From Thiothrix sp. UBA5583 (GTDB lineage Bacteria > Pseudomonadota > Gammaproteobacteria > Thiotrichales > Thiotrichaceae), in the NCBI GenBank assembly GCA_002425225.1, contig DILV01000001.1, positions 1-53,784 of the forward strand: a stretch of DNA of 53,784 nucleotides, written 5' to 3'. The notes beneath the pieces are model-generated. The model ran no database searches. It was not told the origin of the DNA and saw nothing but the letters and a program-made list of their open reading frames with translations. Positions 1 through 53,784 of the stretch are shown here, in pieces. The stretch's first letter is position 1. Every line of letters starts with the position of its first letter. The translations under genes were made by a program, and so were the position numbers.

Positions 1-443
1 GCTGACTTGTGTATAAGGAGATGGATTGAAACCCCCTTACCAGTCCGTGCCGATTTGTTTGATGGTATTCTCCCGGCTTATTTAGTCGGGAGTGGATTGA
101 AACCACGAGTTTTTGAATGTGCCACTGGTATCGCGCGCATTCTCCCGGCTTATTTAGTCGGGAGTGGATTGAAACTGGGTCATGCGCGGGCATGACAATT
201 TGCTCGAGCATTCTCCCGGCTTATTTAGTCGGGAGTGGATTGAAACCTGATGTGCGAAAACCCCCGCTTATGGGCGGAGGTATTCTCCCGGCTTATTTAG
301 TCGGGAGTGGATTGAAACGGCTTACAAACCGCCTCGCCTCAACTTGACGCGGTATTCTCCCGGCTTATTTAGTCGGGAGTGGATTGAAACAAGCTGATGT
401 TGCAATCTTATTACGTGCTTAATTTATTCTCCCGGCTTTTTTG
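1..443 (+). CRISPR. CRISPR array, trailer end, no cas genes in window
   Basis: Five identical 37-bp repeats lie at 67-103, 139-175, 210-246, 282-318 and 354-390, separated by unique spacers of 34-35 bp. Each repeat starts ATTCTCCCGGCT and ends GGATTGAAAC. A 9-bp stem (CTCCCGGCT with AGTCGGGAG, one G-U pair) surrounds a TATTT loop. The ATTGAAAC end matches the usual crRNA 5' handle of class 1 systems, so the array is probably transcribed on the plus strand. The repeat at 426-443 keeps only its first half, as expected of the trailer end. At the left edge, 1-32 keeps the last 11 bases of the repeat but is divergent before that. No cas gene or leader is visible; both may lie left of the window. 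The subtype (type I or III) cannot be decided from repeats alone. Confidence 0.97.
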
Positions 444-4509: not shown

Positions 4510-4553
4510 GGGTAAAGGCACAACAAGCATTGTGCCTTTACCCGTTCTTTTTC
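4510..4553 (+). terminator. Intrinsic terminator after fumarase
   Basis: A perfect 14-bp stem (4510-4523 with 4530-4543) has a 6-nt loop and is followed by GTTCTTTTTC. The right arm covers the stop codon of the convergent lysozyme-like gene, so the hairpin separates two converging units. A T-tract is present only on the plus side. Confidence 0.85.
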
Positions 4554-5260
4554 ACTACCGGGATACCTAATGCGTTCGCATAAGCCGTGTCTTCGTCAAG
4601 CCCGGCATCCACCAGCTTCTGAAAATCATCCCTGGCTTTGCGTAGAGCGCCTTCGACACGGGTTGAGCTGATCCGCGCCTTGTTGTTGCCTTTGCCATCG
4701 TAAAGCCCACGTCCGCTGGGCGCTTTGAACGCTGCCCATTCGCGGGCTACAGCATATTTGGCAGAATATAAATCCTGACCATGCCTGACCCAGCGGTCAA
4801 TGGCTGGCTGTTTTTCCTTTGCCAGATACAGGGCAAAAATAGTGTCCTGCACGGCTGGGCTAAAGGGCGTAGAAGGGTGGAGGTTGAGTTCGCGGACAGC
4901 GTGGTTCAGCGTCTCCGGGATGATCTGGTAGTGTCCGACAGCCAGCAGTTTTTGTGTGGAGCAGGAAGGCAACGACTGATAGTACTGGATTTCCCGAATC
5001 GTCATACCCGTCAGGTTCAAAGGCGCACGGTTGCTTTTGGCACAACGCATGGAACCCCGGTTGTAACTGTTATAGCCACGGCTGCCTGATTCACCTTCCA
5101 GAATCAGTTTCTTGAGTGTGCCAGGGGGCGCGTGGCTATTGCTGTAGTGCAGGCCAGTTCCCGCCGCCAGCAGGGACAAGACGATGCCCGCAGTGAATGC
5201 CAGCCAATGCCGGGAGAAGGCTCTGACAGGGGAGCCAACATGGTAATGGATGCTGTTCAT
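4538..5260 (-). CDS. Membrane-anchored lysozyme/muramidase-like protein
   Basis: A 240-aa protein with one N-terminal membrane segment (about residues 19-39) and a periplasmic lysozyme-like fold. Residues 52-70 read ILEGESGSRGYNSYNRGS, in which a Glu (E55 or E57) is the likely catalytic acid. LLAVGHYQIIPETL (about 105-118) is the GxYQIIPxT motif of phage and transglycosylase-type muramidases. The predicted role is local cleavage of peptidoglycan. The start is the ATG at 5260, which overlaps the stop of the FtsK-like gene as ATGA; the frame is open further upstream inside that gene but a start there is unlikely. It is the last gene of the cluster, and its association with a membrane complex suggests it opens the cell wall for that complex. 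Confidence 0.72.
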   Translation of the reverse strand: MNSIHYHVGSPVRAFSRHWLAFTAGIVLSLLAAGTGLHYSNSHAPPGTLKKLILEGESGSRGYNSYNRGSMRCAKSNRAPLNLTGMTIREIQYYQSLPSCSTQKLLAVGHYQIIPETLNHAVRELNLHPSTPFSPAVQDTIFALYLAKEKQPAIDRWVRHGQDLYSAKYAVAREWAAFKAPSGRGLYDGKGNNKARISSTRVEGALRKARDDFQKLVDAGLDEDTAYANALGIPVVKKNG

Positions 5261-6729
5261 TCCTGCGGCTGCCACTTTTCCTGGATGGTTGTTACTGCCT
5301 GCTCGATTTCTTCGCCCGAAACAGCGGCAGATAATGCCCGTTTCGGTGCTGCATCTCCTGACATGAACACGTAGCACTCGCCTTGTTCGCCCAAGGTTTC
5401 GCAGCCTTTCTGTCCGATCAGCAATTCACTGAACTCATGGGCACGTACCCGCATTCCGATACTGGAAGGGATACCCTGACGCAGGGTTTCGCCGCAGGTT
5501 TTGGGGTCATAGCACTGGATGCCGAACAGGAAGTGGATTCCGGCTTCCTGCGTGGGGGCAGCACCAATCATGTCGAGCAGCAACGCCTTGATGGTTTCGC
5601 CAATTTCCCGGTCATCATCCGCAGAAACCGGGGCATTGCATTTCAGGCCGATGGTCAGCTCGCTGAAAGCAATCAGGTGGTAGGGCATGGGTTTTTCAGG
5701 GAAACGGCGGTTGTAGGCGGCAATATTGCTGACACCTGCTTCCCTGAACACATCGCAACGCTGGAGCATCATTTCACGGATATGCAGCAGACGCTTGTAA
5801 GCCTTGTGCATTTCGGTAATGACGGGTTCGACTACGTGGGGCAGGTTGTTACATACCGCCAATTCCAGCAGCTTGGGGTCGATCAGGGTGATGCGCAATC
5901 TGTCTGGTGACATGGCATAGCTTGCCCCCAGCAAGATGTTGAGCATTTGTCCGGCACGTTCCATACCTATTTCTCCGCCAACCAGCAGGTGAGGAGCATG
6001 GGTAATGTCAACTAGCAACGGGTTGCCAACCAAATCTTCACCCACCAGACCCGGTAGGGTATGGCTTGATTGTGCTGCTGCTTTCAGCATCTCAATAGTG
6101 CGGATGGCGCGGTACTGTGTTTTGGGTACATACATGGCTGCACGACCATTACCGATATTGGCATCAATACTGATATGGCTGCCTTTGGGGAGTTTCAGGG
6201 AACGGGCGAAATTGTCGCCGAGGGTTACAACGTTGTTGATGTCGTAACCTTGCTGAACTTCCAGTTCGTACATGTCCAGTGTAGCCCCGGACGTATCCAG
6301 CACAACCACATTGGCCTTAATGTTGTGGGCATTCAGGGCATCCTGGATTTTTTTGCCCCACCATTTTTCGGGATCCATGCCTTCTTCAAGCAGAAAGCGG
6401 CGTTTGACTTCCTCTTCCTTGGTCTTTGCTTCCGGTTTGCCCAGCCAGTGCCCGCCACGTAAAGGGCGGGTAGCATCCAGAATGGCAAAACCGACAATGA
6501 GCGCTAGCCCGGTAGCAAAACCGTTGATACCCCAGATCAGGTACAACACCATAAGTACGGGAACGCCTATCAGGGTAGGTTTCGCCATGTCAACCAGATC
6601 TGTGCCTGAGGGCTTGGCAGTGCGCCAGGCTTCAGGCAATACACCCACTTTGTATTTGGTACACCAGACAAGAAAGGTTTCTTTGATGTTTTGCTGTTCG
6701 GATATTTTTTTGGATATTTCAAGGGACAC
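5257..6729 (-). CDS. FtsK/SpoIIIE-like membrane protein with inactivated Walker motifs
   Basis: A 490-aa protein. Two membrane segments lie at about 52-68 and 69-84. Residues about 125-205 resemble the FtsK alpha domain (ARSLKLPKGSHISI) and 240-480 the RecA-like beta domain. The family landmark LIDPKLLEL (282-290) and the following PHVV and AAYNRR positions are kept. Where FtsK has the P-loop GTTGSGKS this protein has GGEIGMERAGQ, with no GK[ST]. Where FtsK has a Walker B such as VVLVDEFADL it has LIAFSELTIG. The ATQRP motif is GIQCYDP. No gamma winged-helix domain is present. ATP-driven DNA pumping is therefore unlikely, and a structural or coupling role is inferred. The start is GTG at 6729, preceded at 9 nt by GGAGG; an upstream TTG at 6771 has no such site. 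The gene overlaps both neighbours. Confidence 0.8.
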   Translation of the reverse strand: MSLEISKKISEQQNIKETFLVWCTKYKVGVLPEAWRTAKPSGTDLVDMAKPTLIGVPVLMVLYLIWGINGFATGLALIVGFAILDATRPLRGGHWLGKPEAKTKEEEVKRRFLLEEGMDPEKWWGKKIQDALNAHNIKANVVVLDTSGATLDMYELEVQQGYDINNVVTLGDNFARSLKLPKGSHISIDANIGNGRAAMYVPKTQYRAIRTIEMLKAAAQSSHTLPGLVGEDLVGNPLLVDITHAPHLLVGGEIGMERAGQMLNILLGASYAMSPDRLRITLIDPKLLELAVCNNLPHVVEPVITEMHKAYKRLLHIREMMLQRCDVFREAGVSNIAAYNRRFPEKPMPYHLIAFSELTIGLKCNAPVSADDDREIGETIKALLLDMIGAAPTQEAGIHFLFGIQCYDPKTCGETLRQGIPSSIGMRVRAHEFSELLIGQKGCETLGEQGECYVFMSGDAAPKRALSAAVSGEEIEQAVTTIQEKWQPQE

Positions 6730-7084
6730 TAGTGCGAGCCTCCGCAACAGAACTGGCAGGTTTCTCAGCAACCGGAGCTGTTTTTTCCGCCCACCAGTCT
6801 TTCATGCCATCCAGCCATTGTGGTGTGGCTGCGGTTGTGATGGCGGATTCAATACGTCCTACGGTCACTGACACGGGCTGCCCTTGGTAAAGGGAGTATG
6901 CCAGTACACCCACTGTTACAGCACCAATCAGACCAAGCCATGAAAAGCCGGAAGCCGCCGTATTGGCGTTGCTTCCGACATGGACATGCACTTGTACCGG
7001 TTCCTGTGGGGGGGGCGAAAATGTCTGGACGGGCAGCAGCTCTCCCATCAACACTCGCTGCCCATCAGTCAACTCTTGCCTCAT
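6719..7084 (-). CDS. Single-pass membrane protein of the FtsK-like cluster
   Basis: A 121-aa protein of unknown family. A short cytoplasmic-looking start is followed by a proline- and valine-rich stretch (FSPPPQEPVQVHVHVG), one membrane segment (about residues 48-66, LGLIGAVTVGVLAYSLY) and a tail ending in an alanine- and proline-rich linker. The ATG at 7084 overlaps the stop of the preceding gene (TGATG), which suggests translational coupling. A GTG at 7111 would add nine residues and is the alternative start. The end overlaps the GTG of the FtsK-like gene by 11 bp. No function can be assigned. The tight packing suggests a component of the same membrane complex. Confidence 0.62.
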   Translation of the reverse strand: MRQELTDGQRVLMGELLPVQTFSPPPQEPVQVHVHVGSNANTAASGFSWLGLIGAVTVGVLAYSLYQGQPVSVTVGRIESAITTAATPQWLDGMKDWWAEKTAPVAEKPASSVAEARTSVP

Positions 7085-7620
7085 CAACTGCACCCGCAGT
7101 TTTTTGCCCACTTGCTATCCAGACTGCCATTATTGTTCATCTGGATGCATTCATTCTTTTCCTGCTGGGTCAATTGTCTGCCGAGCACGCCACTGTAAAA
7201 GCTGCACTGGCTCATATCGTATTGTTTGTTGCTGACAACAGCCATATTGGAGTTGTACTGGAAGCCTGGCACTGCCTGAGGAATACGGTTCACGTCAGCG
7301 CCACCAGCAGTCATCAGTACCAGCACCAGGACGGTGGATGCAACCCAGTTGATTTCTTCTTCCCAGACATTGGCCATGCTGAGGATGGCGCGTGCGCCTT
7401 CGGCAATGGCAACAACCCCAATCTTGTAAGGAGGTGCATTAAGCCCTGTAAACTCAAGTGGGTTTTCCCCGTGAAAAGCGAAGTAGCCCATCCACATGGC
7501 AGCCAGCAAATGGAAGAACCAGCCAATATCAACAGCACTCATGCCCATTAACAGTGGCTTAGTGCTTAATACGGTAGCAATGCGGGTGCGTTTTTGCTCA
7601 ACAACAGTTGAAATGGCCAT
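7084..7620 (-). CDS. Multi-pass membrane protein with Cys-containing tail
   Basis: A 178-aa protein of unknown family and first full gene of the cluster. Hydrophobic segments lie at about 30-50 (VDIGWFFHLLAAMWMGYFAF), about 65-82 (weaker) and 89-106 (INWVASTVLVLVLMTAG). The C-terminal part is soluble, rich in Asn and Gln, and has four cysteines (one in DMSQCSFYSG, one in KNECIQ and two in NCGC near the end), as expected if it lies in the oxidising periplasm. A run of G residues (AGGGGGT) precedes the ATG. It is encoded directly after a short upstream reading frame whose stop abuts the ATG. Confidence 0.68.
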   Translation of the reverse strand: MAISTVVEQKRTRIATVLSTKPLLMGMSAVDIGWFFHLLAAMWMGYFAFHGENPLEFTGLNAPPYKIGVVAIAEGARAILSMANVWEEEINWVASTVLVLVLMTAGGADVNRIPQAVPGFQYNSNMAVVSNKQYDMSQCSFYSGVLGRQLTQQEKNECIQMNNNGSLDSKWAKNCGCS

Positions 7621-7692
7621 TTACACACCCCCTGCAACGGATGACTGGAAGGAATATGTAAGGGATGCACAAGCAATGACTTGCTGCGTCAT
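7621..7692 (-). CDS. Possible 23-codon leader peptide or small protein
   Basis: A short ATG-initiated frame (begins MTQQVIACASL, ends SSVAGGV) stops with TAA immediately before the ATG of the multi-pass membrane protein and is in the same frame as it. A GAGG sequence lies about 10 nt before the ATG. The frame has an in-frame stop just upstream. It could be a regulatory leader, a real small subunit, or chance. The exact abutment of stop and start is the only support. Confidence 0.3.
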   Translation of the reverse strand: MTQQVIACASLTYSFQSSVAGGV

Positions 7693-8163
7693 GGTGGGGT
7701 TAACCTCGCGCCTTAGGTAAAAAACAATACAATATGGCGCAGTTACCGCAATAGGCAATGTAGACATTTATTCAAGGAAAGCCGACACTATTCACCGCGC
7801 CCATCTTGCTAAAATATTGCACAACATCAAGATGTTTCAGGTGTATAAAATTGAGCCACACCCATATTCCCCAAACACGACACTCATCAAATCAACTTGG
7901 GGATACACAGTCTTTCAGTATGCATCAGCGCTCAGAAGTGTAGCAGAAGAATGAATGCCGGATGAATATTTTCCTGGCCTGTTTTGTGAATTTTTATGCA
8001 GATAGTTGGGTGTATTGACATAAGGCAGGTTTTGGCAGGTGTGTCTTCGACACATGCAGGTTACGGTTGGGCTGGCTGACTGTTTTGACTGGTTATTGAT
8101 GGGCTGCGCCTTTATAATCGCCATCGCGCTCTGAGAAAGAATATTGTTAACTGGAGAGAGTTC
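7693..8163. other. Intergenic region between membrane cluster and icd
   Basis: About 470 bp between divergent units. A TATAAT box at 8113-8118 is the likely -10 of icd, with no good -35 at the standard distance; a TTGACT at 8085-8090 is 22 bp away. A small hairpin, GTGTC/GACAC, lies near 8041-8053. On the minus strand a TTGCGG/TATTGT pair in 7720-7770 could drive the membrane cluster. I see no convincing gene here. Confidence 0.5.
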
Positions 8164-9417
<1,254 letters not shown>

Positions 9418-49230: not shown

Positions 49231-50193
49231 TTATGGCTGCGTTAACATTTCCTGAAACTCAGGGCTAAAGTTTCGCAAAATCGTATCGGGGTCTGTGGAG
49301 TCAAACATAATATTCTGGCAGTCGTAGTAGAAACTGCGGATTGCGGTTTCGAGCGGCATTTTGTCGTTGATGCGTTGTTGCAGGATTTTTCTGCCTAATC
49401 GAAGTAACATCATGGGGTTAGCGAGTGGCTCTATTTTCTCGGAATAGAATTCGGCAACCTGTCGGCACAGCTCAATGTTGCGGATTTCTAGGAAAATATC
49501 ACCTTCACTTTCCTGCAAGATGGGGGCAAGCACAATGATTAGCTCTTTCTTGGGGAAAAATTCCATATTGGCAAAGCGGCTCAGGGTTGGGTAGGCGTGG
49601 CGTGAGAAGAACACAATGTTTTTCTTGTTCAGGCTACCTTTTTTGGTTGGGTCAAAATACTCAATGTAGCGCGTCAGGATGTCTATCCGTTTTTGCAGAG
49701 TGTAGCGGCTGGAGACAGAAAACAGGAAGTTGATGTAAGCATCCAGCGTGTAGAATTCCCTGTTCTCGAAGCTGGGTTGGTTGAACTGCTCTTGCCGCAA
49801 CGGTTGGCTATCCGTGTAAAACAGGAAAGAGGGGAATTGCCCAAAGGCAAGAATCCTTCCTTCATGTTCCAACTCTGTCAGATAAGCATCGCTTTCTGCT
49901 TCACTGGCAAATGCTCGTACACTAATGCCTTCGCCTTCCACACAGTAGTGTTGTAACTCCGACTTGAGCAGTTCGTGAGGTTGACGGTGGAAGAGCTTAG
50001 CCATAACCAGCAACTCAATGATACTTAAAGTTTTGTCGCCTGAAAGCAACTCGGAAATACGCGATTGATGTATCTGCTCAATCCCGAAGCGTTGCAGTTC
50101 CTCAGTCATTGCTTGGGCTAGTGTAGTCTGGCTTTTAGGAAAGTACTTGATGCGTTCAGTTTTCAGTAGTGTGTGGTCTTGTGGGATGTACAT
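49231..50193 (-). CDS. Xre-type regulator with large C-terminal domain
   Basis: A 320-aa protein. Residues about 24-75 form a Cro/CI-like helix-turn-helix (TLAQAMTEELQRFGI, HQSRISELLSGDKTLSIIEL). The remaining 245 residues are a mixed alpha-beta domain of a kind I do not recognise. It ends in a helical part around NPMMLLRLGRKILQQRI. It is divergent from the large secreted hydrolase gene, sharing a 247-bp control region with operator-like repeats over its own promoter. It may control itself and the hydrolase. Confidence 0.72.
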   Translation of the reverse strand: MYIPQDHTLLKTERIKYFPKSQTTLAQAMTEELQRFGIEQIHQSRISELLSGDKTLSIIELLVMAKLFHRQPHELLKSELQHYCVEGEGISVRAFASEAESDAYLTELEHEGRILAFGQFPSFLFYTDSQPLRQEQFNQPSFENREFYTLDAYINFLFSVSSRYTLQKRIDILTRYIEYFDPTKKGSLNKKNIVFFSRHAYPTLSRFANMEFFPKKELIIVLAPILQESEGDIFLEIRNIELCRQVAEFYSEKIEPLANPMMLLRLGRKILQQRINDKMPLETAIRSFYYDCQNIMFDSTDPDTILRNFSPEFQEMLTQP

Positions 50194-50202
50194 GCACTAT
50201 CC

Positions 50203-50239
50203 AATCAGGTTTACTATAGATAAATCTGATTATAGATAA
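50203..50239. promoter_or_regulatory. Operator-like repeats over the regulator promoter
   Basis: An inverted repeat AATCAG/CTGATT (50203-50208 and 50226-50231) and a direct repeat TATAGATAA (50215-50223 and 50231-50239) overlap the -10 region of the regulator gene. This arrangement suits self-repression. Confidence 0.45.
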
Positions 50240-50257
50240 TGCCCATCTGGCTGACAA
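50229..50257 (-). promoter_or_regulatory. Promoter of the Xre-type regulator
   Basis: On the minus strand TTGTCA (50257-50252) and a perfect TATAAT (50234-50229) are 17 bp apart. Confidence 0.65.
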
Positions 50258-50322
50258 ATAAATAATCAATTAATTTTCCTAATTAACGAGTTTTTCCTGT
50301 TAAATATAATTAAGCCATATCG

Positions 50323-50351
50323 TTGACTGATCTTTTATAGAAAATTATTAT
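50323..50351 (+). promoter_or_regulatory. Promoter of the secreted hydrolase gene
   Basis: TTGACT (50323-50328) and TATTAT (50346-50351) are 17 bp apart, about 90 bp upstream of the ATG. Confidence 0.6.
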
Positions 50352-50440
50352 CGTAATATTATGAATAATCCTTAGATACCGTTACCAGTGGTACAAAAAG
50401 GGTTGCTGGATAAAACTTAAGGTTACGAGGAGTAAGAGTT

Positions 50441-53400
50441 ATGTATTATCAATATCAGAAGATTGCTGCTCATTTGCTAAGATTAGATCAACTCCTAGCA
50501 GGTTTTCTGTTATTAATTGCAAGTATTTCAGTAAATGCAGAAATGACTTCTCAAGAAGCATCAAAGCGATTGACGGAAATAAATCATATTGCAACGGATT
50601 TTATTCTGCCAACTACCAATATAACATTTAATGACCCAGCCACTATCAATGATGGGTATAATTATGCAGATAAATGGGTTAGTGGCAATACCACACTTCA
50701 TGCTGGTGAAGATATAAATACTACAAATGACTGTGGACGTGCTGTATTAGCAATAGGCAAAGGTATAGTTATTGCTTCTGCTCACGGAGGTGCTAGTTGG
50801 GGTGGGATTATTTCGATTCAACATCGGTTTTTAAATAAAAATGGAGTTTATCAGGAAATAGTAAGCCAATATGCACATATTGCACCGCTTGATAGCATTA
50901 AAGAGGGTAGTTTTGTTGATGTAGGGCAGAAAATTGGCTATATCGCAGATAAGTCGGGAAATACATGTAGCAGTTCAAAGAGTGATAATCCATACTTTGC
51001 AGGTGTATCCAACTCAATGTACTGGGATGTTACGTGGTCACCACATTTACATTTTGAAATCAGAACAAATACCGACTTGACATTTAATAAATGGTTTGGA
51101 CTTGCTGATTTTCAAAGGTTTGCACCAACCAATTGTACTAATATATCATCGGCATCATTAACTTGCAGGGTTGCGTCTGTTGACAAAGCGGGATATACAG
51201 ACCCATTAAAATTTATTAATTCAAAGCCTGCTAATCAACTTAACATGGAAATCAAAGATTTCTGGATTAAATCTGGAGAAATTTTCGAAAAAACCCCATC
51301 TGGTTTCGATGCCCAATTCAAATTGATAAATAAATCCACATCAACTATGTTCTTGTCACAAGTGGCTTTGGCTTTACATAAAGTAGATGCTGCAAAAACC
51401 TACCTTAAAGATATGAAACTTTTTAATAACATTAATCTTAATCCAAATGTACCTTGGCAGACAGGTAAAATTGTGACAGATACACCCACTGCTGGTGATT
51501 ACTTAGTGATTGCAAAAATTTATCAAAACAATACATGGGTAACATTAGGAGAACAAAAAATCACTATAAAAAGCAATGCAGTTTCAGGTAATTGCCCTTC
51601 AAGTTTGGGTACTTTCAACCCGAATATTATTATTCCTGAAAATGAAGTTAAGTTCTTTGAGATACCTGAAGCCCAAATAAGAGCTTTCTTGAGCAATCAA
51701 GGAGGTGTACTGTCTAGCTTGGACATGACGTTGGCTAAGCTGGCTACTTCTAGCTATCCATTTGATCCAGTTGAGAACACGAAACGCGGTGGGAAAACTG
51801 CTTCTCAGTTTTATACGACCGTTACTAACCCACTAGCACGTTGGGGATTGCAAGAGCTTGCTAATAATACACCGACTAATCAACGTTATGATGCTGCAAA
51901 ACTCATTTATTTGACTGCAAAAGAAAATAAAATGAATCCGGTATTATTGTTGGCTTTTCTTCAGAAAGAACAAAGCCTTATCAGTTCAGCCTCCATGAAC
52001 TATAGCGGCAGTGTGCTTTTAAAGAAATTAAATGAGGCTACAGGTTATGGCGTTAAAGGCAGTGGTACAGATCTGACATATTATGGATTCCTTGCGCAAA
52101 TAGCAGGAACAAGCTGGGATATGACCAGCAAGATGAATAATGGTACGTCTTTTGCAAGATGGGCAACAGATTATGCTACATCACCAAATGATGAGGAAAA
52201 TTTGTTTAAAGCTTATTCATCTTATCGGCAGTATTTTATGAGCATGGGTTACTCACCGTGCGCAACACCAAGTGTTGTAGATAAAATTCCAACCTTTAGT
52301 AGCGTAACCTTACCTACAAGTGTAACAGTGCCGGGTAAGCTGTATTTTACAGGTGCTTTATCTGATGATAAAGGTTTGTCAATGCTGAGCATGATGGTTA
52401 GTGGGCCAAAAGGCAACGATATTCTTGGATTCAGTAATACACTTTCTGGTACGTCTGTAAGTTTGTCTAGTTACTATTTTGATAGTAGTAGTTCAACCTA
52501 TGCAGGAACACCGGGAGTGTACACCGTAACTTTGTGGGCAAAAGATAATGCAGGGCAAGCAGTAGAAGGAGCAAGGTTCACCGTAACTGTACAGGGCGGC
52601 AGCGTAAATGCTCCTACCAATTTGCGGGTTAGCTTTAGTGGAACTAGTTACACACTTGCATGGAATGACAATAGTTCTAATGAGGCTGGCTTTAAGATTG
52701 AACGTAGTACTGATAATAAGGCTTGGCAAGAAGTAGGCTCAACAGTTTCTAATATTGCCCAAATATCAGGCTCAACAGTGGGCATAACTTCGGGTACAAA
52801 AGTGTACTTCCGTGTCAGGGCGTTTAGTGGTTCTACTTACTCAGGCTATAGCAATGTGCTGGAGTTTGTTGTTCCGTCTGTGAAGACTCTGAGCAGTGTG
52901 AATGTCACCTGTCCAGCTAGCGTAAACGAGAACAGCAGTGCTTCCTGTTCAGCGGTTGCCTCCTTCAGTGATGGCAGCACCACCAGCAGCGGTTTCAGTT
53001 GGTCGGAAAACTCCAGCTACGCCAGCATCAGCAGCAGTGGGACACTGACCACCAGCAGCGTCAGCAGTGACCAAAGTGTGGCGGTAACGGCAAGTTACAC
53101 CCACAACGGCACAACCAAGAGCGGCAGCAAAACCCTGACCATCAAGGATGTAGTCGCACTTGATAGTATGAAGTTTGTGACTGATTCACCAAAAGACGAC
53201 ACAGTGTTCAATGGTGGTGATTCGTTCGATAAGAGTTGGGTATTACAAAACACCGGTACAAGTACATGGAATAGTAGTTACTGTCTCAATCCTGTTACAG
53301 GTGGTAGCAGTTTGGGATCAGTCAAGGCGTGTGTAAGCGGTACAGTAGCACCGGGAGCCAGCCATACGTTTGTTGTCAAGATGAAAGCCCCTATAGCTCA

Positions 53401-53784
53401 AGCAACTGAAATGACATACAGGCAAGACTGGCGTTTAACCAATGCTGCGGGAGTACGGGTAGGTACATATGACGTATATGCACGCATTAAGGTGAAAGGT
53501 GGGGCGAAGACCCTGAGCAGTGTGAACGTCACCTGCCCAGCCAGTGTGAACGAGAACAGCAGTGCTTCTTGTTCAGCGATTGCTTCCTTCAGTGATGGCA
53601 GTACCACCAGCAGCGGTTTCAGTTGGTCGGAAAACTCCAGCTACGCCAGCATCAGCAGCAGTGGGACACTGACCACCAGCAGCGTCAGCAGTGACCAAAG
53701 TGTGGCGGTAACGGCAAGCTACACCCACAACGGCACAACCAAGAGCGGCAGCAAAACCCTGACCATCAAGGATGTACCACCTGC
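50441..53784 (+). CDS. Large secreted multidomain cell-wall hydrolase (partial, runs off the end)
   Basis: An open frame from ATG at 50441 (ACGAGGAG upstream) to the window end, 1114 codons without a stop. A signal peptide is at about 1-33 (ends VNA). An M23/LytM peptidase domain (about 85-210) has zinc ligands H87 and D91 (HAGED) and H202/H204 (HLHFEIR). A lysozyme- or transglycosylase-like domain is at about 440-600, with a candidate catalytic Glu510 (LLLAFLQKEQSLI). An Ig-like stretch follows, then FnIII (about 720-810; NLRVSFSGTSYTLAWND). A Big-type Ig repeat (815-904), an NBR1-Ig-like domain (905-1022; WVLQNTGTSTW) and a second, nearly identical Big copy (1023-1112) complete it. The first 2 kb are AT-rich compared with the rest of the window. 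The substrate and the C-terminus are unknown. Confidence 0.85.
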   Translation, partial: MYYQYQKIAAHLLRLDQLLAGFLLLIASISVNAEMTSQEASKRLTEINHIATDFILPTTNITFNDPATINDGYNYADKWVSGNTTLHAGEDINTTNDCGRAVLAIGKGIVIASAHGGASWGGIISIQHRFLNKNGVYQEIVSQYAHIAPLDSIKEGSFVDVGQKIGYIADKSGNTCSSSKSDNPYFAGVSNSMYWDVTWSPHLHFEIRTNTDLTFNKWFGLADFQRFAPTNCTNISSASLTCRVASVDKAGYTDPLKFINSKPANQLNMEIKDFWIKSGEIFEKTPSGFDAQFKLINKSTSTMFLSQVALALHKVDAAKTYLKDMKLFNNINLNPNVPWQTGKIVTDTPTAGDYLVIAKIYQNNTWVTLGEQKITIKSNAVSGNCPSSLGTFNPNIIIPENEVKFFEIPEAQIRAFLSNQGGVLSSLDMTLAKLATSSYPFDPVENTKRGGKTASQFYTTVTNPLARWGLQELANNTPTNQRYDAAKLIYLTAKENKMNPVLLLAFLQKEQSLISSASMNYSGSVLLKKLNEATGYGVKGSGTDLTYYGFLAQIAGTSWDMTSKMNNGTSFARWATDYATSPNDEENLFKAYSSYRQYFMSMGYSPCATPSVVDKIPTFSSVTLPTSVTVPGKLYFTGALSDDKGLSMLSMMVSGPKGNDILGFSNTLSGTSVSLSSYYFDSSSSTYAGTPGVYTVTLWAKDNAGQAVEGARFTVTVQGGSVNAPTNLRVSFSGTSYTLAWNDNSSNEAGFKIERSTDNKAWQEVGSTVSNIAQISGSTVGITSGTKVYFRVRAFSGSTYSGYSNVLEFVVPSVKTLSSVNVTCPASVNENSSASCSAVASFSDGSTTSSGFSWSENSSYASISSSGTLTTSSVSSDQSVAVTASYTHNGTTKSGSKTLTIKDVVALDSMKFVTDSPKDDTVFNGGDSFDKSWVLQNTGTSTWNSSYCLNPVTGGSSLGSVKACVSGTVAPGASHTFVVKMKAPIAQATEMTYRQDWRLTNAAGVRVGTYDVYARIKVKGGAKTLSSVNVTCPASVNENSSASCSAIASFSDGSTTSSGFSWSENSSYASISSSGTLTTSSVSSDQSVAVTASYTHNGTTKSGSKTLTIKDVPP
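52883..53152 (+). repeat. 270-bp intragenic repeat, copy 1
   Basis: Encodes a 90-residue Big-type Ig domain (begins KTLSSVNVTCP). It is nearly identical at DNA level to 53507-53776, especially over its last 180 bp. The two copies are 624 bp apart start to start. Confidence 0.95.
53507..53776 (+). repeat. 270-bp intragenic repeat, copy 2
   Basis: Second copy of the Big-domain repeat, with a handful of base changes concentrated in the first 90 bp. It is followed by a new sequence at the window edge; more copies may lie beyond. Confidence 0.95.

What the first reader, a model, noticed from the sequence alone, without database searches (positions are those of the whole stretch)
4538..7692. Compact membrane cluster built around an FtsK-like protein with destroyed ATPase motifs
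The sequence shows four overlapping minus-strand genes: a multi-pass protein with a Cys-bearing tail, a single-pass Pro-rich protein, an FtsK homologue and a membrane-anchored lysozyme-like enzyme. The FtsK homologue keeps the alpha and beta folds, including the LIDPKLLEL landmark, but replaces the P-loop with GGEIGMERAGQ and has lost the Asp of Walker B and the gamma domain. FtsK, TraB and VirD4 relatives normally need ATP hydrolysis. A conserved pseudo-pump packed with a wall hydrolase suggests a membrane-spanning structure or channel, not a DNA motor. I know of no described system with this composition. The function is inference.
Basis: partly seen in the sequence, partly recalled or inferred. 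Interest (0 to 1): 0.78.

Follow-up and report, generated by a model that had tools for sequence, protein, structure and literature searches.

The report
ATPase-dead FtsK relative with wall-cutting neighbour
Some filamentous sulfur bacteria keep a four-gene membrane set in which a relative of the DNA pump FtsK has lost its motor and most of its DNA-gripping residues yet is preserved, next to a likely cell-wall-cutting enzyme, which points to an unknown membrane structure rather than a DNA pump.

Summary
Four overlapping minus-strand genes (A 7084-7620, B 6719-7084, C 5257-6729, D 4538-5260) recur in the same order, overlapping, in 4 of 16 genomes of the genus (Thiothrix); A was not found in the other 59 of 63 family genomes searched. 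C is a true FtsK relative by sequence and predicted fold, but in 4 of 4 orthologues the third P-loop Gly, the Lys and the Ser, the Walker B Asp, the arginine finger and 3 of 4 DNA-contacting basic residues are replaced, mostly by one fixed residue each; the Walker B Glu and the IDPK landmark stay. Codon statistics show purifying selection on all four genes (dN/dS 0.04-0.20 in the 11 of 24 pairs where it could be calculated). So C is a conserved pseudo-ATPase, not a decaying motor. D is a phage-type, membrane-anchored lysozyme-like protein that keeps the Glu invariant among its phage relatives. Best reading (0.4): an inner-membrane complex with C as a non-catalytic scaffold or gate and D opening the wall locally. 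Complex, ring and channel are inference. Nearest precedent: the degenerate FtsK-type domains of type VII secretion EccC. The paper searches made here listed no such four-gene set.

The parts
7084..7620 (-). Gene A, 178 aa: hydrophobic membrane protein with a tail bearing 4 invariant Cys (139, 158, 175, 177)
   Evidence: 82-83% and 69% identity in three other genomes; no family match of weight
6719..7084 (-). Gene B, 121 aa: one hydrophobic segment, conserved PVQVHVHVG stretch before it
   Evidence: 78, 68, 51% identity in three other genomes
5257..6729 (-). Gene C: FtsK-like pseudo-ATPase (P0001 begins one codon earlier, at 6732), with two adjacent N-terminal hydrophobic segments, alpha and beta domains, no gamma domain
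5947..5979 (-). Degenerate P-loop of C (residues 252-262, GGEIGMERAGQ): third Gly, Lys and Ser replaced
5656..5679 (-). Degenerate Walker B of C (residues 352-359): Asp to Ser at 357, Glu 358 kept
5491..5517 (-). QCYDPKTCG of C (residues 406-414) in place of DNA-binding loop II of FtsK; two of the five invariant Cys
   Evidence: role of loop II from PMC7321959 (passages)
4538..5260 (-). Gene D, 240 aa: N-terminal membrane anchor and phage-type lysozyme-like domain with Glu57
7621..7692 (-). Possible 23-aa leader ORF ending just before A; ORFs of the same length at the same place in G058 and G062
7689..7712 (-). Upstream stretch shared with G058 and G062, found once in the window's genome
4510..4543 (.). 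14-pair hairpin overlapping D's stop, between D and fumarate hydratase; listed as terminator-like for the plus strand only

Best explanation
The four genes encode one inner-membrane assembly. Shown: C has the FtsK alpha/beta fold by sequence and prediction, has N-terminal hydrophobic segments, and lacks residues for ATP hydrolysis and most of those for DNA contact in 4 of 4 orthologues. Inferred: C forms a static cytoplasmic platform or gate, perhaps still a ring; A and B are its membrane partners, with A's Cys tail disulfide-bonded in the periplasm; D, anchored in the same membrane, cuts a local gap in the peptidoglycan so that the assembly can pass or anchor in the wall. It would work without an ATPase of its own, as is proposed for the degenerate FtsK-type domains of type VII secretion that may open and close a pore.
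For: Same four genes, order and overlaps in 4 genomes; purifying selection; motor, Arg-finger and DNA-loop residues lost together and replaced by mostly fixed residues; FtsK motor fold kept; lysozyme-type motifs kept in D; hydrophobic segments in all four proteins; precedent of a degenerate, ATP-free EccC5 DUF domain (PMC11154593, passages).
Against: No interaction, ring or channel was tested. Only 4 of 16 genomes of the genus have it, so it is dispensable. A and B match no known channel protein. D is not confirmed as a lysozyme by Pfam or solved structures. For EccC the role of the degenerate domain is itself debated in the passages seen.
Confidence: 0.4

Rival explanations
1. Domesticated piece of a mobile element (conjugation module or phage): an FtsK-type coupling or packaging protein plus wall hydrolase and small membrane proteins, kept for a new, minor role such as blocking transfer or infection.
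For: Two different chromosomal places and patchy distribution; D resembles phage proteins, with a homologue in a prophage-like stretch of G058; the TcpA coupling protein is the second-best fold; intact FtsK-like genes lie in other elements of the genus.
Against: C is closer to FtsK than to TcpA; no A, B or D homologue in the 16 FtsK-bearing stretches fetched other than the orthologous clusters; no viral-contig or plasmid match to A, no phage match to A or B.
Confidence: 0.22
2. Regulator of the cell's own FtsK or of septal wall remodelling: inactive C subunits join or compete with active FtsK at the septum, with D trimming septal wall.
For: C keeps the alpha/beta fold; SpoIIIE rings are reported to tolerate inactive subunits (PMC4728128, title and abstract start in listing).
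Against: About 26% identity to the chromosomal FtsK of the same genome and a long separate branch make mixed rings doubtful.
Confidence: 0.12
3. Captured phage lysis-like unit: A and B act like holin and spanin, D is the endolysin, and C controls when it acts, for example in programmed lysis or filament breakage.
For: D is endolysin-like with an N-terminal anchor; A is hydrophobic, B has one segment.
Against: A and B match no holin, spanin or other phage family at a meaningful E-value and no phage record; an FtsK-like partner is not part of lysis cassettes as I know them (recalled).
Confidence: 0.07
4. Decaying remnant without function.
For: Motor motifs lost; patchy distribution.
Against: Intact overlapping frames and low dN/dS in diverged genomes; the replacement residues are themselves mostly fixed.
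Confidence: 0.03

Closest known systems
FtsK alpha/beta motor domain (P. aeruginosa 6t8b, E. coli 2ius)
   Same: Whole alpha/beta fold; top 17 Foldseek rows; IDPK, Walker B Glu, sensor Gln kept
   Different: P-loop Lys and Ser, Walker B Asp, Arg finger and 3 of 4 DNA-contact basic residues replaced; no gamma domain; short N-terminus
Degenerate domains of type VII secretion EccC/EssC (EccC5 DUF 8rin)
   Same: FtsK-family fold with lost Walker A, next to the membrane, proposed to take part in pore opening (PMC11154593, passages); in the model helix alpha 1 starts before the former Lys position
   Different: EccC also carries an active ATPase domain; no other type VII component is recognisable here; weaker similarity (rank 47)
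TcpA-type conjugative coupling protein (6o1w-6o1z)
   Same: FtsK-type fold (ranks 18-23); conjugation modules also hold wall hydrolases (recalled)
   Different: Weaker match than FtsK; no ATPase motifs; no relaxase or other transfer gene seen beside the cluster
SspH of Ssp defence systems (PADLOC)
   Same: Profile match to C over its FtsK-type part (1.1e-21)
   Different: SspH profiles are 1561-1766 positions long; A, B and D have no PADLOC match
Phage lysozyme-like proteins (phrog_90 endolysin; virion lysozyme domains)
   Same: GE, YQ and EWA invariant in 8 of 8 aligned sequences; 37-48% identity to the non-cluster members
   Different: D is membrane-anchored and lies in a set without recognisable phage genes

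Membership tests
FtsK/SpoIIIE DNA translocase | Alpha/beta fold of the FtsK family | tested here: met
   Pfam, AlphaFold2 model and Foldseek
FtsK/SpoIIIE DNA translocase | Walker A and B for ATP hydrolysis | tested here: not met
   Lys to Arg, Ser to Ala, third Gly to Glu, Asp to Ser in 4 of 4 orthologues; Walker B Glu kept
FtsK/SpoIIIE DNA translocase | Arginine finger and basic DNA-contact residues | tested here: not met
   R620, R632, K657, R661 equivalents replaced in 4 of 4; K643 equivalent kept as Arg
FtsK/SpoIIIE DNA translocase | Hexameric ring | not testable with these tools
   Only a monomer was predicted
Type VII secretion EccC | Tandem FtsK-type ATPase domains with partners EccB, EccD, EccE (partners recalled) | tested here: not met
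   One domain only in C; no such family matched A or B
Conjugative coupling protein with transfer module | Active ATPase motifs | tested here: not met
Conjugative coupling protein with transfer module | Relaxase and further transfer genes nearby | tested here: inconclusive
   Neighbours are housekeeping-like genes in the window and the 3 other genomes by eye; not scanned with profiles
Ssp defence system (SspH) | Other Ssp proteins in the set | tested here: not met
   A, B and D without PADLOC match; further neighbours not scanned
Phage-type lysozyme | Catalytic Glu and family motifs | tested here: met
   GE, YQ, EWA invariant in 8 of 8; that this Glu is catalytic is recalled for lambda lysozyme
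Phage-type lysozyme | Profile match to lysozyme families or solved lambda lysozyme | tested here: inconclusive
   phrog_90 endolysin 8.4e-13 but best PHROG has unknown function; no Pfam over cut-off; PDB lambda lysozymes only at 0.38-0.39, none with A4
Phage lysis cassette | Holin and spanin partners | tested here: inconclusive
   No such family matched A or B, but these families are very diverse (recalled)

The most novel reading that the evidence does not exclude
A new ATP-independent envelope-spanning channel, possibly a cell-to-cell septal junction of filamentous Thiothrix, in which a dedicated, fully inactive FtsK ring serves as gate or collar and a captured phage lysozyme drills the wall pore.
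Probability: 0.13. Interest if true: 0.85.

Novelty: new variant of a known kind. Interest (0 to 1): 0.55.

Why it matters
FtsK-type proteins are known as motors; degenerate copies are known as extra domains beside an active one. A stand-alone FtsK fold whose motor and DNA-contact residues were lost together, with mostly fixed replacements, in an operon with a lysozyme-like protein, would show that the FtsK fold can be reused as a passive membrane component. It is a clear, testable case: structure, ATP binding and localisation of one small operon.

Tried and rejected
Decay or artefact: set aside. Orthologues with intact motifs: none found; in the class sample (369 genomes) the ten best matches outside the cluster lie in frames of 743-858 aa, as expected of chromosomal FtsK. 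Relatives of A beyond the genus: one 0.008 match (G094) among 369 class genomes at E <= 0.01, none but the window's own among 398 phylum genomes at E <= 0.001. D: only the window's own genome of 369 at 1e-10. B: besides the 4 clusters two weak matches (0.0016 in G037, 0.0036 in G028), not followed because A and D were not found there. Viral contigs: none for C, A or D; B was not scanned there. Plasmids: none for A. Genome-contig scan with C: 1 locus, L034. Other FtsK-like genes of the genus, with intact P-loops, lie in stretches without A, B or D homologues. A regulon by the upstream stretch: one place in the genome. Promoter scan: 0 found, 3.0 expected from shuffles; terminator-like sites 7 against 4.3 expected, so their number means little. 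No Rfam match in the window. Fold search with A's poor model: nothing at E <= 0.001. A metal site of the five invariant Cys of C could not be tested because model coordinates were not in the box. T6SS TssM as precedent: searched, not used.
Full report
What is there. The window is contig C18 of a 3.55-Mb genome in 42 contigs. It belongs to the genus of G058, whose cluster-bearing contig has the length of NZ_JAQTLS010000006.1, Thiothrix sp. STA_22. Between fumarate hydratase (plus strand, to 4501) and isocitrate dehydrogenase (8164-9417, plus; both labels recalled from sequence) lie four minus-strand genes, A to D, each overlapping the next. A 14-pair hairpin overlaps D's stop; the scan lists it as terminator-like only for the plus strand.

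Conservation. C found close orthologues in 3 of the other 15 genomes of the genus: G058 80%, G062 77%, G050 56% identity; further matches were at most 32% identical. A was found in the same 4 of 63 family genomes and no other (E <= 0.01); D in the same 4 (E <= 0.001), with a second homologue in G058. B was strong in the same 4, with two weak matches elsewhere. Order and overlap are the same in the 4. Identities to the window for G058, G062, G050: A 83, 82, 69; B 78, 68, 51; C 80, 77, 56; D 75, 74, 60%. NG86 dN/dS could be calculated for 11 of 24 gene pairs and was 0.04-0.20, with dS 1.2-4.1, so saturated and rough. In the other 13 dS was not calculable; in 24 of 24 pairs third-position differences exceeded first- and second-position ones. 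The controls fum and icd (3 pairs each, without G050) gave 0.02-0.06 (all).

History. A tree of 22 chromosomal FtsK sequences groups G000+G057 and G058+(G048+G062), with G050 split from the rest of the genus at support 0.82. In those five genomes fum and icd are near each other; G000, G058 and G062 carry the cluster between them, while G057 (106 bp between the matches) and G048 (486 bp, with one small gene) do not. In the other 11 they are far apart or on different contigs. In G050 the set lies between coaBC-like and murJ-like genes (labels recalled). Early presence with repeated loss is the simplest history; repeated gain is not excluded.

C is a pseudo-ATPase. One search compared the 4 cluster members with 59 other FtsK-like sequences; 9 rows that repeat the cluster were dropped there, and ten overlapping or repeated loci had been left out. 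Third P-loop Gly to Glu (others: 59 of 59 Gly); Lys to Arg (59 Lys); Ser to Ala (58 Ser, 1 Thr); Walker B Asp to Ser (53 Asp, 6 Glu); Arg finger to Gln (58 Arg, 1 Ala); loop II R632 to Cys (55 Arg); loop I K657 to His in three and Gln in one (42 Lys, 7 Arg); R661 to Glu (54 Arg). Kept: first two P-loop Gly, Walker B Glu, sensor Gln, IDPK and, as Arg, a basic residue at K643. The roles of R620, R632, K643, K657 and R661 come from passages of PMC7321959; the mapping is mine, by motif. In one search the 42 non-cluster sequences (two of them duplicates) keep GK[ST]. Of 78 viral relatives 78 had a P-loop, but one of the two search patterns was an intact P-loop, so this is no control. Five Cys of C are invariant in the 4 orthologues, two of them in the stretch that replaces loop II. 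The cluster members form one long-branched clade (support 1.0) apart from chromosomal and mobile FtsK. C also matches SspH of PADLOC (1.1e-21), whose FtsK-type part this probably is.

Structure. AlphaFold2 with 72 aligned sequences: mean pLDDT 84.4, pTM 0.76; most blocks of the alpha and beta parts are above 85, with a dip at 361-370; residues 1-100 lie at 43-68. Foldseek rows 1-17 are FtsK motor domains (6t8b_B: TM by target 0.82, rmsd 2.3), 18-23 TcpA, then mostly EccC/EssC; the EccC5 DUF domain is rank 47. Helix alpha 1 begins at residue 256, before the former Lys position 259. PMC11154593 (passages) describes an extended alpha 1 in place of the P-loop in the nucleotide-free EccC5 DUF domain, hypothesises that it may still hexamerise, and suggests a part in pore opening; the same passages tell that an earlier study of another EccC pointed to possible ATPase activity. 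The parallel is suggestive only; I had no model of an intact FtsK made the same way.

D. Its best PHROG has unknown function (1.8e-26); an endolysin family follows at 8.4e-13. 122 of 50,697 phage records match; in the 15 rows shown the features are called tape measure protein, amidase, lysozyme-like, lambda lysozyme, endolysin or hypothetical. GE, YQ and EWA are invariant in 8 of 8 aligned sequences (two of the four cluster members were given, and the other two keep Glu57). Against this, no Pfam family passes its cut-off, and solved lambda lysozymes appear only at 0.38-0.39, behind unrelated-looking entries (none with A4). The second homologue in G058 lies beside terminase- and portal-like genes (labels recalled). 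D is probably a captured phage-type lysozyme with an N-terminal anchor; activity is untested.

A and B. No family match of weight for either and no phage record; for A also no plasmid record and no solved chain at E <= 1. A's model is poor (mean pLDDT 50) and a search with it found nothing significant.

Function. Shown: a co-conserved gene set, a pseudo-ATPase, a lysozyme-like partner. Inferred: common complex, scaffold or gate role, local wall opening. Searches of open-access papers (in only 8 of 17 and 8 of 11 papers were listed) showed no title or abstract start that describes such a set; I read passages of two papers only, and subscription papers are not covered.

Noticed in passing
window 67-399: Five copies of an identical 37-nt repeat spaced 71-72 nt, CRISPR-like (label recalled), at the contig's start.
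   Followed up: partly
window 50441-53782: Low-GC stretch (0.364 at 50001-52000) holding one long ORF, open at the contig end, with an M23 peptidase domain and a repeated Ig-like part.
   Followed up: partly
window 7621-7692: 23-aa ORF just before gene A, with ORFs of the same length in G058 and G062; possible leader peptide.
   Followed up: partly
L035 8510-10354, L036 2912-4801, L037 7442-9313, L038 387-2231: Family of 614-629-aa FtsK-like proteins with intact P-loops; in L035, L036 and L037 an unassigned 550-579-aa protein and a 189-198-aa hydrophobic protein lie beside them.
   Followed up: partly
L041, L045, L048, L050: Smaller FtsK-like genes (330-427 aa) next to small membrane-type proteins; possibly another mobile element type of the genus.
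   Followed up: no
L042, L043, L044: Conserved block with a 495-aa FtsK-like protein and neighbours that look like a defence island (by eye).
   Followed up: no
L046 2791-4110: Integrase-like gene (label recalled) about 3 kb from the cluster in G050, with two housekeeping-like genes in between.
   Followed up: no
G061:C1:2637067-2638572: The fumarate hydratase match in this genome has 3 in-frame TGA codons.
   Followed up: no
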